Assembly (NCBI RefSeq): GCF_000330505.1
Contig: NW_004440426.1
Location: forward strand, 603,246-637,057
Direction of reading: 5' to 3'
DNA: 33,812 bases
Source: Entamoeba invadens IP1
Taxonomy: Eukaryota; Evosea; Mastigamoebida; Endamoebidae
Position 1 is the stretch's first letter. Each line of letters starts with the position of its first letter. The notes under the pieces are model-generated. The model did not search any database and had not been told where the DNA came from. It worked only from the letters and a program-made list of their open reading frames with translations. Positions 25,531 to 30,436 of the stretch are shown piece by piece. The position numbers and the translations under genes were made by a program.

Positions 25531-25574
25531 ATATTCCTTTTTACTTTGAAATTGGATACAACCCCCAATGTTTT
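25531..25574 (+). repeat. Left terminal inverted repeat of 3.1-kb element
   Basis: Inner part CTTTGAAATTGGATACAACC... is identical over 31 bp to the reverse complement of the right end. Confidence 0.88.
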
Positions 25575-25774
25575 ATGTATTTGGGTTTTTATTTTTTAGC
25601 CAACATTTTTGAACATTGAAATTAAAAAACAAAATGTAAAACAGTCTTTCATTTGGAGACAATGAGTTTTCGTCTATTTTTTGAGTTTTAGTTTTTCATT
25701 CAAAAATCATCTTTTTCCAATACATCTCAAAATCAAACGTTGTTGAGACGATAGAGTTTCCACACTTCTACCGT

Positions 25775-26809
25775 TTGAATTCACAAAGTGATGTTGACAC
25801 AAAAACAACAAAGACAACTTGCGACATTTTTGGTGAAAAAGCAACACCATTCAATATACCAGATGTTCCAAAACCACTTTCTACAGAAAAAAGTTCATGT
25901 GATGATATTGAACATTTCTCGCATTTCTCGATACCAAACAAAGACCCTTCAATTCTCATTGTCGGTGGATTTTTTACAAACGCTTTACTTGTTTCCCATT
26001 TTGAAGAATATCACAATACACTAAAAACTACATCACTACTACATTTTCCAAAAGACCACTCCTTTCATTTGCATTTCCCCTCGTGTATTGTTTCATCCAC
26101 ATTCGTTGGTCCTTCAAATAGAAAGGACAGTCTTAAACAACTCAACCATTTACAGATTTTGCTCTTCTATAATAAAGGGAATAATAAAAACAAAACTGCA
26201 ATTCACTTTGGAGTATCACCATCGACAGTTTCAAATATTTTGAAAAGAGCTGAATGTGGGAAACCTCTGGAAGGAGAAAGGAGAGGAAGAATGATGGGTT
26301 ACAACACAAAGTTTGACTACCACACAATAACAGAAATTATAAATGAGATTGACAAAAACAACCAAATAACACTGAAAATGTTGATGGACGAAGTCAACTT
26401 AAAGAGGAAAAGGTGGATGGATGGTGTGGAACAAGTTGAAAGAGAGATGGGTGTCGAAGAGGAAAAAATAATTAAAATGAGAGAAAAACAAAATGTAAGT
26501 GTTTCGGGAATACACAACGTGTTATTAAAACTGGGATGGACACTTAAAAACACGAAACAAGAACCGATTAATCGAAACACACCAATGAGGTGTGAGCAGA
26601 GACGCGTTTATGCGGCTCACATTGATTTTATTTTGACATACAAATTCATTTTTGTATATCTTGACGAAGTTGGGTTTAATTTAAACCAACGCAGATCCCA
26701 GGGATACTCTTTAAGGGGTACATGTTGTTCCGTAAAAAACAGGTGCATAAGAGAACCCAACATAACTGCATTTGTTATGATGGTTCCAGGAAAAAAAACT
26801 CGTGTTTAA
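25775..26809 (+). CDS. IS630/Tc1-type DDE transposase, N-terminal part (frame 1)
   Basis: 344 codons from a TTG at 25775; the frame is open back to 25685 without an ATG, so the true start is unresolved (an upstream exon, a non-ATG start or a lost start). Residues about 121-165 form a helix-turn-helix (NKTAIHFGVSPSTVSNILKR) for terminal-repeat binding. A Lys/Glu-rich linker follows. FVYLDEVGF (Asp297) followed by RRSQGYSLRG is the first DDE aspartate block of IS630-type enzymes. The frame stops at 26807 just after the sequence VMMVPGKK, inside an overlap with the next frame that contains eight A. Confidence 0.75.
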   Translation: MNSQSDVDTKTTKTTCDIFGEKATPFNIPDVPKPLSTEKSSCDDIEHFSHFSIPNKDPSILIVGGFFTNALLVSHFEEYHNTLKTTSLLHFPKDHSFHLHFPSCIVSSTFVGPSNRKDSLKQLNHLQILLFYNKGNNKNKTAIHFGVSPSTVSNILKRAECGKPLEGERRGRMMGYNTKFDYHTITEIINEIDKNNQITLKMLMDEVNLKRKRWMDGVEQVEREMGVEEEKIIKMREKQNVSVSGIHNVLLKLGWTLKNTKQEPINRNTPMRCEQRRVYAAHIDFILTYKFIFVYLDEVGFNLNQRRSQGYSLRGTCCSVKNRCIREPNITAFVMMVPGKKTRV

Positions 26810-27737
26810 AATATCGACTAAAAGTTCAAATAGCCTTTTCCTTGAGGATGTTGAGGATGTTTTCATCCCACAACTCAAAGATTGGTTCAACAACTGCTTT
26901 ATTCACTTCGTATTAGATAATGCAGCTATACACAAAAAAGACATGATTTCCCTTTCCTCAAAAAACGGGATCTTTGTTTCCTTTTTAGTTCCTTATTCCC
27001 CACAATTAAATGCTATTGAAAAGTGTTTTTCAATTGCGAAATCGTACTTAAATAAAGTACTTACAGATGACAAGTATTTTCATGAAGCGATTAGAGTATC
27101 AAGATGTTATCAATTTTGTCATTTAAACTTGAAGGCAGCAAACAAAATTGAGCTTCCGGTTTTTTCCTGTCTAATAAGTGCGTCTCTTTTACATGTAACT
27201 GAAGAACAAACGGGAAATCTTCACCTGAAAACTGAAGAATGGATTAAAAGATCAAAGGAAAAAGCCCTATTTATTAATGACGATTCGTGTAATGAAAAAA
27301 TTGTCAATGTTGATGTTCCCAAAGCCGAGGGGGAATTTTCAATAACTTTTACAGAACGAAATGTATTAGAAACAACTGTCAAATACTTAACAAGAAACAA
27401 ATGTCTTCACATATTAGGTGGAAAGAGGTTTGGATTATTTTCAACAGAGAAAGAGACCTCTCCCATTTATTACAAAGAATGTGGAACACTGCTGAATTCA
27501 CTTCCGACAACAACCAGGGATGATGATCTTCCGAAAAAGAGAAAGGCATCTTTCAATGAAAAACTAGTCTCCACCTTTCAGAAACAAGCCAAATTTCAAA
27601 TTGTTTCTGGATTATTCGCACAACAAACCCATCGGGAATATCTTCAACAAACGACACCGCCATTTTTAAATCATCTCAAACAAACTAAAAAAAACTGTTA
27701 TTTCAGACCCAGCAGATCATTACCTTTCAATCAGTGA
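26781..27737 (+). CDS. IS630/Tc1-type DDE transposase, C-terminal part (frame 2)
   Basis: Open from 26781, no ATG before the domain (first near-start codon GTG 26802). Numbering from 26802, FVLDNAAIHKK gives the second catalytic Asp (D39) and YSPQLNAIEKCFS the final Glu (E73), 33 residues between them. It continues the transposase fold from frame 1 exactly: dropping one of the A8 bases at 26791-26798 joins GKK to LVFKI. Residues 110-311 are a Lys/Thr/Ser-rich linker of unknown role that leads to the protease frame. It ends at 27737 in an overlap with frame 3 that again holds eight A. Confidence 0.75.
   Translation, partial: WFQEKKLVFKISTKSSNSLFLEDVEDVFIPQLKDWFNNCFIHFVLDNAAIHKKDMISLSSKNGIFVSFLVPYSPQLNAIEKCFSIAKSYLNKVLTDDKYFHEAIRVSRCYQFCHLNLKAANKIELPVFSCLISASLLHVTEEQTGNLHLKTEEWIKRSKEKALFINDDSCNEKIVNVDVPKAEGEFSITFTERNVLETTVKYLTRNKCLHILGGKRFGLFSTEKETSPIYYKECGTLLNSLPTTTRDDDLPKKRKASFNEKLVSTFQKQAKFQIVSGLFAQQTHREYLQQTTPPFLNHLKQTKKNCYFRPSRSLPFNQ
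26791..26798 (+). promoter_or_regulatory. A8 run at first frame junction
   Basis: Eight A in the 29-nt overlap of frames 1 and 2. Reading with one A fewer joins the transposase halves. Candidate slippage site or a one-base insertion. Confidence 0.5.
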
Positions 27738-28458
27738 TTCCTCAATTGAAATATCCAACACTGTTTTCCCGAGATACATCACTGAAATAGAACACCTTTT
27801 TGATTCGGAAGATACGCAACGAGTTGTCAGAAACATTTTATCTTTCCCATACATGCCGGACATTTTTGAAAAAAGACGAATGCTTGAAAACGAACAGATT
27901 GATACCGAAATACTCGATTTTTTCAATTCATGGACAATGCTAAAAAATGACTACATTTGGAAAAACAATGTATTGGTTACAAATTGGGATATGTTCGACA
28001 ATGAAAAAACATTCACTGAACAACTTGACAAGTATTTAGATACCATCACTGAATTTGATATTTTTCTGCTTCCAGTCCTTCACCGTCATCATTTCATGAT
28101 TTGTGGTGTTTTCGTTGGCGACGACAGTGTTCCCTTTGTGGTTAAATTGGACAGTTTGGCTCCAAATACTTTTTTGGATAGTGTTGCTCTATTGCTCAAA
28201 AAGAAATTTGAAAATCGGGGATTTAAATTTGAATCTATTTGGCTTTTTTCCCCAACAATTCCACAACAACTTGATTGCGTTTCATGCGGATGTTATGCAT
28301 CTTACTTCATTGACAGGATTGTGGAATGTTGTCCTCGAACGGTTTCGGAAATAACGAGGGTTTTAGACGAAGCAGAAGCAAGATCATTTAGAGAAACAAT
28401 GAAGAAAATCACAAAACCAAGATTTGCCAATGAAATATTGGATTTGTTATGCTTTTGA
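27670..28458 (+). CDS. Ulp1-like (C48) cysteine protease domain (frame 3)
   Basis: Open from 27670; an internal ATG at 27853 would give 201 residues. From that ATG: LLPVLHRHHFMI holds the catalytic His (H79 or H80), VVKLDSL the Asp (D100), and IPQQLDCVSCGCY the oxyanion Gln (Q139) and nucleophile Cys (C145), with the Q-x5-C-G spacing of Ulp1/SENP enzymes. C48 proteases cleave SUMO or SUMO-like modifiers; transposon-borne relatives are known in MULE and KDZ elements, with unclear roles. About 60 protein-like residues precede the ATG and connect to the transposase frame, so a fusion polyprotein is more likely than a separate gene. It ends 142 bp before the right terminal repeat. Confidence 0.75.
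   Translation: MISNKLKKTVISDPADHYLSISDSSIEISNTVFPRYITEIEHLFDSEDTQRVVRNILSFPYMPDIFEKRRMLENEQIDTEILDFFNSWTMLKNDYIWKNNVLVTNWDMFDNEKTFTEQLDKYLDTITEFDIFLLPVLHRHHFMICGVFVGDDSVPFVVKLDSLAPNTFLDSVALLLKKKFENRGFKFESIWLFSPTIPQQLDCVSCGCYASYFIDRIVECCPRTVSEITRVLDEAEARSFRETMKKITKPRFANEILDLLCF
27687..27694 (+). promoter_or_regulatory. A8 run at second frame junction
   Basis: Eight A in the 68-nt overlap of frames 2 and 3. As at the first junction, one A fewer joins the frames (KQTKK to TVISDPADHY). Confidence 0.5.
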
Positions 28459-28599
28459 AAAGCCATCTGGTACTCATTCTTAAAAAAGTGTTATTAAAAC
28501 TATTATTTGGTTTTCTATTTTCTATTTTCATTAAAAAAAATAATAGTATTGTTTTAACTTCCTGAAACTGCGTTTTTTCTTTTTGTGTTCTAAATATAT

Positions 28600-28644
28600 A
28601 AAACATTGGGGGTTGTATCCAATTTCAAAGAAAAAAAGGAATAT
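28600..28644 (-). repeat. Right terminal inverted repeat of 3.1-kb element
   Basis: AAAACATTGGGGGTTGTATCC... mirrors 25531-25574. Confidence 0.88.
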
Positions 28645-29005
28645 CTTATTAATTTTTGTTATCATTTGAATATTAATTTTACTAAAATCACAAGGATAAA
28701 AAATTACAAAGAAGCCCAAACAGGTTTTCCCTCTTTTTTTATTTTTTTAAAACTCAGAAAAAAATAAAACATCAACTTTTTAAATATTTTTCGAATAAAA
28801 CAGAAAAACAAAGCTCTAATGCATTAAAAACACATATGAAAAATTTGTAGTTAATATTTTAATAAAAAAAACATAATAATACTATTAAAATAGACAATTC
28901 TTTCAAATATAATAATTCAAAATACCTCATTCAACAATCTTAAGATTAATCCTCATTGTAATATCACCCTTATTATTAACTCAAAACTCTTAATATAAAT
29001 ACACC
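28645..29005. other. Intergenic, AT-rich
   Basis: Flank of the 3.1-kb element and upstream region of the PARG gene. AAACAGGTTTTCC near 28720 resembles part of the MITE end, but no paired repeat was found. No gene. Confidence 0.5.
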
Positions 29006-30436
29006 ATGTCAACTCAAGAATGTCCTTTTTCACGTTTCTGTGTATCTGAATATTGTACATTAACACACCCATCTCCATTTTTAGATCTTTTACCACCAAC
29101 TCCAGAAGATCCCAGAATCACTACTTCTCCTTATCGACTTAGAAACTGGTTACGTATTAAAGCTGTTATACCTTTAATTAAAACAGTTTCAGATTTGTCA
29201 ATTTATTTATCTTCTTTATTGACATCAGCTTCTTTTTTTTCAAAAGGAACGCTTTCAGTGATAACCCTCCACGCCTTTGAAAATTTAACACCAGAAGAAG
29301 TGAAATCCTTTGAGGAAGAGATTTTACCGACAATCACTGAACTCGTTTTAGGCTCAGAAAATGTGTTACACCCACCACCCGTGATTATGAACACTAATGC
29401 ACTCCAACTGTTAACAAGAAGACAATGCGCATCATTTTTGGCTTGTGGTTTTCTTGGATTATTCTCTACAACACTCAGAAAGAACTATAGAAACCACCCC
29501 GATGTAACTGGCTTTGTGAGTATGTTTACTTCAAGTGATCAAGTCAGCCTAACTCGATTAAGGTGTTTTATTGGGTACTTTCATGTAATTCACAATAACA
29601 TGAAGAATCAACATTTCATGAGAGAGCTTGTGACATTCAATCGAGTAGATTCACCCCCATTTGATGTTAAACGACTCTTACAAGCAAAGATTAAATTCAG
29701 TGGAATTAGTGTGAATGACGAGATGGGCATCATGGACTTCCCAGAAACTACATTAAAGGCCGATTTTGCGAATAAATATCTTGGTGGCGGTGTCTTGAGA
29801 GGAGGGAACGTTCAAGAAGAGATCATGTTTATGGAGTGTCCAGAGATGATTTGTGGTTTATTCATTAATACTGTGATGGATGACTTTACCACAATTCGGA
29901 TATCTGGTGCTATCAGATACACCCAAATAGTTGGGTATGGTGGGAGAATTGAATTTAAAAAAATCTTTGAAGAGCAAGTGAAGCAAAACATAGTAGCTTT
30001 GGATGCACTTGTATTTGGAAGAGACAAAGAGGCTCAATTTAAGAGCGACTCTATTCAACGAGAAATGACTAAAATCTATTCTGCGGTACACAGTGCATAT
30101 GAAGATAACTTATCTGACTTTGTCACTGGGAAATGGGGATGTGGTGTTTTTGGTGGAGATGTTATTCTCAAGTTCTTGTTACAAAGCGTTGTGTGCTGTT
30201 ACTGCAAAAGAAAAATGACGTTCACAACTTTCCACGACAAAAAGACTTTTGAGGAGATCAATGAGTTCTTGCACAAACTCGAAAAGGATCCCCCAGAACT
30301 TGGAAACTTTGTTGAGTGGATTTTTTGGTATATTAATACTAAACAAGAATGGAGAACTGTACTCAAAGACGAGACATTGCCCTCAGGCTCTAAGCCATTT
30401 AAAGCTTCGACAAATGATCAATGCATAATTGCTTGA
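29006..30436 (+). CDS. Poly(ADP-ribose) glycohydrolase (PARG)
   Basis: 476 residues. The catalytic macrodomain carries the PARG signature: ANKYLGGGVLRGGNVQEEI, with GGG at 260-262 and QEE at 270-272; the second Glu (E272) corresponds to the catalytic Glu of human PARG. Upstream, VSLTRLRCFIGYF and VDFP-like blocks fit the accessory helical part of the fold. The enzyme cleaves ribose-ribose bonds in poly(ADP-ribose), reversing PARP modification after DNA damage or stress. The first 21 residues show C6-x5-C12-x4-C17-x3-H21, a Nab2/ZC3H14-type CCCH zinc-finger pattern followed by Pro, which is not usual for PARG. The start is the first ATG. Nuclear or cytosolic location is not shown by sequence. 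Confidence 0.9.
   Translation: MSTQECPFSRFCVSEYCTLTHPSPFLDLLPPTPEDPRITTSPYRLRNWLRIKAVIPLIKTVSDLSIYLSSLLTSASFFSKGTLSVITLHAFENLTPEEVKSFEEEILPTITELVLGSENVLHPPPVIMNTNALQLLTRRQCASFLACGFLGLFSTTLRKNYRNHPDVTGFVSMFTSSDQVSLTRLRCFIGYFHVIHNNMKNQHFMRELVTFNRVDSPPFDVKRLLQAKIKFSGISVNDEMGIMDFPETTLKADFANKYLGGGVLRGGNVQEEIMFMECPEMICGLFINTVMDDFTTIRISGAIRYTQIVGYGGRIEFKKIFEEQVKQNIVALDALVFGRDKEAQFKSDSIQREMTKIYSAVHSAYEDNLSDFVTGKWGCGVFGGDVILKFLLQSVVCCYCKRKMTFTTFHDKKTFEEINEFLHKLEKDPPELGNFVEWIFWYINTKQEWRTVLKDETLPSGSKPFKASTNDQCIIA

What the first reader, a model, noticed from the sequence alone, without database searches (positions are those of the whole stretch)
25531..28644. DNA transposon combining an IS630/Tc1-type DDE transposase with a Ulp1-like C48 protease
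Seen: 44/45-bp inverted termini enclose, on one strand, a helix-turn-helix plus DDE core (D297 of frame 1; D39 and E73 of frame 2) and a protease domain with H79/80, D100, Q139 and C145 in Ulp1 spacing. Known: Ulp1-type proteases are carried by MULE and KDZ transposons; I do not know of one in the IS630-Tc1-mariner class. Inference: a lineage in which a desumoylase-like domain is part of the transposase polyprotein, perhaps to process the polyprotein or counter SUMO-dependent silencing of the element.
Basis: partly seen in the sequence, partly recalled or inferred. Interest (0 to 1): 0.88.

Follow-up and report, generated by a model that had tools for sequence, protein, structure and literature searches.

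The report
Mariner-type transposon with fused SUMO-protease domain
A Tc1/mariner-type jumping gene carries, joined in one reading frame to its DNA-cutting transposase in several copies, a Ulp1-like protease domain that is predicted to strip SUMO-type tags and would likely help the element move or escape silencing.

Summary
At 25532-28643 lies a full-length DNA transposon: 49/50-nt terminal inverted repeats (TIRs) flanked by TA, a helix-turn-helix/DDE_3 (IS630-Tc1-mariner) transposase, and a C48 (Ulp1-like) protease with His, Asp, Gln and Cys in place. It is not a chance neighbour: of 13 loci found in the same genome with a DDE core of this kind, 11 carry protease-domain sequence, 1 runs into N before it, 1 shows none. 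In six copies, TIRs of one type (TATTCCTTTT...) enclose both parts. The eight transposases usable in a tree form one clade (99/97), nearest to a protease-free family. In 5 of 10 copies readable across the joint, transposase, linker and protease share one frame, so the ancestral product was probably one polyprotein; the window copy is broken at two A-runs. Eleven 80-81-bp nonautonomous elements share one subfamily's ends. Ulp1-type proteases are described in MULE, CACTA, Ginger1 and Crypton elements; ten literature searches gave none in Tc1/mariner, but the key Entamoeba paper (Pritham 2005) was not readable. Most likely function (inferred): removal of SUMO-like tags at the transposition complex; self-processing at a diglycine is not supported. 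New variant of a known kind.

The parts
25532..25533 (.). TA, presumed target-site duplication, left
   Evidence: Sequence; all six TIR-defined copies begin and end at TA. No empty site was compared.
25534..25582 (+). left terminal inverted repeat, 49 nt
25685..26809 (+). open frame 1: N-terminal part of the transposase, HTH and first half of the DDE core
   Evidence: 97% identical to the C200 copy, 41% to an intact 699-aa ORF on C137
26150..26260 (+). helix-turn-helix match (HTH_23, residues 156-192)
   Evidence: E 5e-5, just under the curated cut-off
26663..26665 (+). first catalytic Asp of the DDE core
   Evidence: alignment A2
26781..27737 (+). open frame 2: second half of the DDE core, transposase C-terminus, linker
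   Evidence: DDE_3, E 8e-10
26791..26798 (+). run of eight A at the first frame joint
   Evidence: the run is two shorter in the C200 copy, which is also out of frame here
26916..26918 (+). second catalytic Asp
27018..27020 (+). catalytic Glu (33 residues after the second Asp)
27687..27694 (+). run of eight A at the second frame joint
   Evidence: again two shorter in C200
27670..28458 (+). open frame 3: C48 (Ulp1-like) protease
   Evidence: hhalign 97.4% against four C48 proteins of the same genome
28090..28092 (+). protease His141
   Evidence: invariant in alignment A3
28150..28152 (+). protease Asp161 (Asn in 8 of the 10 copies where the position can be read)
28267..28269 (+). protease Gln200
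28285..28287 (+). protease Cys206
28592..28641 (-). right terminal inverted repeat, 50 nt
28642..28643 (.). TA, presumed target-site duplication, right

Best explanation
This is a decayed copy of a Tc1/mariner-group transposon family whose transposase carries a C-terminal Ulp1-like (C48) cysteine protease, which likely acts by removing SUMO-type tags at the element's own transposition complex. Shown: TIRs with TA at their ends, the DDE transposase, the C48 domain with its catalytic residues, their repeated joint occurrence, and shared frames in several relatives. Inferred: one transposase-linker-protease polypeptide of about 1,000 residues in the active ancestor; binding of the TIRs through the HTH part; cut-and-paste at TA; delivery of the protease to the bound element, where it deconjugates SUMO from the transposase, chromatin or repair proteins and so favours mobility or counters silencing. 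The 80-81-bp elements are presumably moved in trans.
For: Co-occurrence: protease sequence in 11 of 13 loci with this DDE core. Same TIR type around both parts in six copies: C72 (the window), C200, C137, C186a, C186b, C88. Flanks: BLASTN of 600 bases on each side found one match at E <= 1e-6, 74% over 91 bases between the right flanks of C186a and C88. Single frame: C107 is open for 482 codons from the DDE core through the linker until N begins; C11 is open from the transposase C-terminus to the protease His and Asn; C88 from the catalytic Glu to the start of the protease; C186a and C186b keep one frame with stops in it. One clade: 8 rows, 99/97, next to the protease-free C68a family at 89/89. 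Constraint between subfamilies: protease C72/C137 dS 2.04, dN 0.81; C137/C11 1.96 and 0.55. His, Asp/Asn, Gln and Cys all readable in 7 of 11 copies. Enzyme identity: C48 over the Pfam cut-off in four copies, hhalign 97.4%. The same genome holds SUMO/ubiquitin-like genes (Rad60-SLD, best E 1.5e-19) and Ulp-type C48 genes. Parallel fusions: DDE_Tnp_4 + C48 in the same genome, USP + DDE_3 elsewhere (P0010), Ginger1 with C-terminal Ulp1 or OTU.
Against: No enzymatic, expression or transposition data. Frames differ across the joint in 5 of 10 copies, including the intact-looking C137 pair of overlapping ORFs, so two separate products are possible. Among near-identical copies selection on the protease is not detectable: C137/C186a 1 synonymous and 5 nonsynonymous changes; C72/C200 3 and 3, p 0.11. 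The acid is Asn in most copies. Four of 11 protease copies lack or do not show one of the key residues. C55 has the transposase without a detectable protease. The single-sequence AlphaFold2 model of the window protease is poor (pLDDT 39), so the fold was not confirmed. SUMO specificity rests on family resemblance alone.
Confidence: 0.5

Rival explanations
1. Two products from one element: the transposase ends at its own stop and the protease is a separate, overlapping ORF (or reached by frameshifting or slippage at A-runs), acting as an accessory protein in trans.
For: C137 has a 699-aa transposase ORF overlapping a 386-aa protease ORF in another frame; C72, C200, C190 and C143 also differ in frame. 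In C72 and C200 both joints lie at A-runs that differ by two between the copies.
Against: C107, C11, C88, C186a and C186b read on in the same frame. C107 and C186a are about 98.5% identical to C137 (C137/C186a 0.986, C137/C107 0.986) and are in frame where C137 is not, which points to a later frame break in C137.
Confidence: 0.25
2. The protease cuts the polyprotein itself, releasing transposase and protease.
For: Overlapping or fused layout; adenain-like relatives of C48 process viral proteins (recalled).
Against: A diglycine between the domains is seen only in C72 and C200, in none of the stretches examined from C137, C107, C186a, C186b, C11, C88, C190. Other cleavage sites were not tested.
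Confidence: 0.12
3. The C48 domain is no longer an active protease but a SUMO- or ubiquitin-binding tether.
For: Asn in place of Asp in 8 of 10 readable copies; SIM-like acidic/hydrophobic motifs in one subfamily's linker.
Against: Cys, His and Gln are invariant in the five best copies; His-Asn-Cys sites are active in other cysteine proteases (recalled: papain, some USPs).
Confidence: 0.1
4. Chance neighbour: the transposon landed beside or around a host protease gene.
For: The genome has several Ulp-type genes outside this family.
Against: The pair recurs in 11 loci, inside TIRs in six, at diverged subfamilies.
Confidence: 0.01

Closest known systems
Tc1/mariner families of Entamoeba invadens (Hydargos, Gemini, Piglet, Mogwai, Gizmo; Pritham 2005, listed in PMC2657916)
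   Same: Tc1/mariner superfamily; that survey states TIRs under 50 bp; presumably the same genus
   Different: No protease is mentioned in PMC2657916 (0 occurrences of the word in the main text). Pritham 2005 itself is not held, so this family may already bear one of these names.
Ginger1 DNA transposons (PMC2836005, passages read)
   Same: DDE transposase with a C-terminal Ulp1 (or OTU) domain, some with about 44-58-bp TIRs
   Different: Gypsy-integrase-like transposase with zinc finger and GPY/F motif; not the DDE_3/IS630 type
MULE and CACTA elements with ULP1-like regions (PMC2528002 and PMC2836005, passages read)
   Same: cut-and-paste transposons carrying a C48 domain
   Different: other transposase superfamilies; in grapevine MULEs the ULP1 region can lie in the opposite orientation
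Crypton elements of oomycetes with C48 peptidase (PMC3212892, section 6 and passages read)
   Same: a C48 peptidase carried by a mobile element
   Different: tyrosine recombinase. The same paper's MarCry-1_FO joins a mariner transposase to a Crypton, but C48 is named there for CryptonF-2_PS and related elements and for some CryptonS, not for MarCry
Kyakuja-Dileera-Zisupton (KDZ) transposons (recalled; one search, listed no KDZ paper)
   Same: Ulp1-like protease with a transposase
   Different: different transposase class

Membership tests
IS630-Tc1-mariner superfamily | DDE_3/Tc1-type catalytic core with D, D, E | tested here: met
   DDE_3 E 8e-10 in the window, 1.6e-17 in the C137 relative; D-D-E aligned with other DDE_3 transposases
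IS630-Tc1-mariner superfamily | TA target site and TIRs | tested here: met
   TA at both ends of six of six TIR-defined copies; TA at both ends of 10 of 11 short elements, L096 has TT at its left end. The search pattern itself contained TA, and no empty site was compared
IS630-Tc1-mariner superfamily | N-terminal helix-turn-helix DNA-binding part | tested here: inconclusive
   HTH_23 23.5 bits against a cut-off of 24.6 in the window; weak HTH matches in relatives
Tc1 subfamily (DD34E) | 34 residues between second D and E | tested here: not met
   33 residues; the same spacing in C137 by the alignment. Not filed as Tc1 proper
Peptidase family C48 (Ulp1/SENP) | C48 profile match | tested here: met
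   over the Pfam cut-off in C72, C200, C137 and C186a. C190 and C11 pieces gave no C48 match
Peptidase family C48 (Ulp1/SENP) | His-Asp-Gln-Cys active site | tested here: met
   H141, D161, Q200, C206 in the window; in relatives the acid is mostly Asn
Peptidase family C48 (Ulp1/SENP) | deconjugation or maturation of SUMO-like proteins | not testable with these tools
   needs an enzyme assay
Peptidase family C48 (Ulp1/SENP) | Ulp1 fold | tested here: inconclusive
   single-sequence model pLDDT 39, not searched further
Ginger1 | Gypsy-integrase-type transposase | tested here: not met
   Pfam finds DDE_3, no integrase family,

The most novel reading that the evidence does not exclude
Fusion of a ubiquitin- or SUMO-deconjugating protease to the transposase is a recurrent, convergent solution in IS630-Tc1-mariner and other cut-and-paste elements: here C48 at the C-terminus of a DD33E transposase, in the same genome C48 behind a DDE_Tnp_4 transposase, elsewhere a USP in front of a DDE_3 transposase. 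It would mean that these transposases are held down by Ubl conjugation and carry their own antidote, with the protease tethered to the element ends.
Probability: 0.4. Interest if true: 0.75.

Novelty: new variant of a known kind. Interest (0 to 1): 0.6.

Why it matters
Transposons of several superfamilies have picked up Ulp1-type proteases and nobody has shown what they do. A small mariner-type element with a fused protease, protease-free sister families in the same genome, and 80-81-bp derivatives that show what the ends alone can do is a compact natural comparison set for asking whether SUMO removal helps transposition or escape from silencing. Tc1/mariner transposases are usually regarded as needing no partner, so a built-in deconjugase would be unexpected there.

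Tried and rejected
Programmed -1 frameshifting as the rule for the family: rejected. The breaks at A-runs are confined to C72/C200 (both joints) and C137 (second joint), the direction differs between C72 and C200, and only one of the two C200 joints has the usual slippery phase by my reading (and the sequence; the slippery motif is recalled). An intron at the second joint (GT...CAG around 27603-27706) does not join the two frames in phase (by eye, no call). Protease as a host gene: rejected (recurrence). Structure route: one AlphaFold2 job on the window protease alone gave pLDDT 39; no fold search was run on it. Relatives outside the genome: the C137 transposase found 3 proteins, none with C48; the C137 protease found none; a profile of 9 transposase rows found 20 proteins, none annotated with PF02902 and one (P0010) with USP; viral contigs, one scan with the C137 transposase: none. 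Bacterial genome contigs were not scanned. SUMO-interaction motif: seen in one subfamily, not pursued. Rows dropped before counts: C111 (N-terminal stretch only, near a contig end), C90 (protease fragments, no transposase found in the held stretch) and the free-standing C127 and C7:116894 proteases are outside the 13; C186a, C186b, C11 and C151 were dropped from the tree and C88 never entered it, so those five belong to the family by similarity and not by the tree; C12, C97 and C71 were dropped from the tree as near-duplicates. The 13 loci are a lower bound, because the genome search scores only its best candidates.
Full report
What is there. The window lies on contig C72 of a 35-Mb genome in 233 contigs. 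Between TA dinucleotides at 25532-25533 and 28642-28643 lies an element with inverted arms 25534-25582 and 28592-28641 (47 of 50 columns identical). Three + strand frames encode an HTH plus the first catalytic Asp (25685-26809), the second Asp and the Glu (26781-27737; DDE_3, E 8e-10), and a C48 protease (27670-28458; 22.6 bits against a cut-off of 20.7). The second Asp and the Glu are 33 residues apart.

The window copy is broken. Frame 1 has no Met before residue 202, and both frame joints fall at A8 runs. A second copy on C200, 99.0% identical over 3,107 aligned bases, has six A at both places and is also out of frame there. The other indels between the two copies are one base near the left end, a 60-base indel in the linker and one base near the right end.

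Relatives in the genome. Searches with the three frames and with the C190 relatives gave 13 loci with this kind of DDE core: C72, C200, C137, C186a, C186b, C11, C88, C190, C143, C23, C151, C107 and C55. Protease-domain sequence was found in 11; in C151 only the N-terminal part, in C88 a decayed one. C107 runs into N after the linker. C55 shows no protease at E <= 0.05 with four protease queries. In five protease-free mariner-type loci of the same genome (C68a, C178, C59, C7, C193) the same four queries found nothing. Six copies have TIRs of one type, starting TATTCC or its TA-plus-TTCC equivalent, around both parts. TIRs were not found for C190, C143, C23, C55 and C151; for C11 a weak pair without TTCC was seen, and for C107 only the left end. 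Flank comparison of the six found a single match between different flanks, 74% over 91 bases between the right flanks of C186a and C88.

One protein or two. In C107, C186a, C186b, C11 and C88 the transposase, the linker and the protease (in C107 only as far as the N run) lie in one frame. C107 is open for 482 codons; C11 and C88 have stop-free pieces that cross the joint. In C72, C200, C137, C190 and C143 the frames differ. C23 and C151 are too broken to judge. The protease-free C68a transposase (485 aa) ends about where the linker begins in the alignment, as if linker and protease had been added to a complete transposase.

Phylogeny. A tree of 149 columns and 23 rows puts C137, C107, C72, C200, C143, C23, C190 and C55 in one clade (99/97), with C68a next (89/89, not a fully supported branch). 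Several outside rows have long branches.

Selection. Between subfamilies, synonymous sites are near saturation while amino-acid change is lower: protease C72/C137 dS 2.04 and dN 0.81; C137/C11 1.96 and 0.55; C72/C190 1.41 and 0.81. The DDE part is more constrained (for example dN 0.40 for C72/C137). Among near-identical copies nothing is significant, and the protease of C137/C186a has more nonsynonymous than synonymous changes (5 and 1), as expected of copies that decay after insertion.

Protease. His, acid, Gln and Cys can all be read in 7 of 11 copies (C72, C200, C137, C186a, C186b, C190, C23). C11 lacks the Gln, C143 the His, C88 was not read to the Cys, C151 not to the active site. The acid is Asp in C72 and C200 and Asn in the 8 others that can be read. 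Profile comparison with four C48 proteins of the same genome: probability 97.4%, E 1.6e-11 over 180 columns. The nearest in-genome C48 sequence outside the family is the free-standing C127 protein, 31% over 103 residues. A search of solved structures with the window protease gave only sub-threshold SENP1 matches, E 0.55 and worse, behind an unrelated chain at 0.39.

Short derivatives. A 21-base pattern from the C137 end matched 36 times, against 0 for the reversed control. Ten head-to-head pairs were listed, and an eleventh was seen in a fetched stretch: 80 or 81 bp, two ends and almost nothing between. They lack transposase and protease, so if they moved they were presumably moved in trans.

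How it probably works. The transposase brings the protease to the element ends. In a cell with SUMO-like genes (Rad60-SLD best hit E 1.5e-19; SUMO and ubiquitin were not told apart) the protease would remove SUMO-type tags from the transposase, chromatin or repair factors. SUMOylation in E. histolytica is reported (PMC8198320, abstract read). All of this step is inference. Parallels make it more than a guess: Ginger1 transposases end in Ulp1 or OTU domains and its authors propose a role of these domains in repair (PMC2836005, passages); the same genome has a DDE_Tnp_4 transposase in one frame with C48 (L074); and a metagenomic protein joins a USP to a DDE_3 transposase (P0010).

Novelty. Ten searches and passages of the papers named above gave no Tc1/mariner element with C48. 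PMC2657916 lists five Tc1/mariner families in E. invadens and does not use the word protease in its main text. Pritham 2005 was not available. So the pairing looks new for this superfamily, within a known kind: DNA transposons that carry Ubl proteases. Confidence that the transposase and protease belong to one element: about 0.97. That the ancestral product was one polyprotein: about 0.75. That it acts as a SUMO/Ubl deconjugase at the transposition complex: about 0.5.

Noticed in passing
L074 (G000:C186:467225-467617) and L076 (G000:C114:329139-329603): A different transposase type (DDE_Tnp_4, PIF/Harbinger-like by recall) in one open frame with a C-terminal C48 domain. L074: DDE_Tnp_4 E 1.2e-13 and C48 E 9.7e-7 in one ORF. 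L076: DDE_Tnp_4 E 1.4e-6, C48 24.6 bits in the genome search but not listed in the Pfam scan. L072 is a 97.5% copy of the L074 protease part.
   Followed up: partly
protein P0010 (940 aa, metagenome): Ubiquitin-specific protease (UCH, E 8e-9) in front of a DDE_3 transposase (E 2e-9) in one ORF; groups with P0014 (1085 aa) and a Tritrichomonas musculus protein P0019 in the tree (99/97).
   Followed up: partly
L087-L096, L098: Eleven 80-81-bp inverted-repeat elements with the C137-type ends; the middle occurs in both orientations.
   Followed up: yes
C137, C186a and C107 linkers: Two tandem SIM-like motifs (VIIV, VIDL with acidic neighbours) before the protease; not seen in the C72, C200, C11, C88 or C190 stretches examined.
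   Followed up: partly
window 26791-26798 and 27687-27694: The two longest A-runs of the coding part sit exactly at the two frame joints; both are two bases shorter in C200, and neither copy keeps frame. Slippage, assembly error or a frameshift signal cannot be told apart.
   Followed up: partly
L069 (G000:C127:20158-20559) and L075 (G000:C7:116894-117034): Free-standing C48 proteins, 97% alike over 62 residues, nearest in-genome relatives of the transposon protease outside the family.
   Followed up: no
L073 (G000:C187:63951-64208): C48-like stretch next to a 1.4-kb run of N; perhaps a Polinton-type protease (guess).
   Followed up: no
window 28994-30436: Full poly(ADP-ribose) glycohydrolase gene (PARG_cat_C E 5e-52) starting about 350 bases right of the element.
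   Followed up: no
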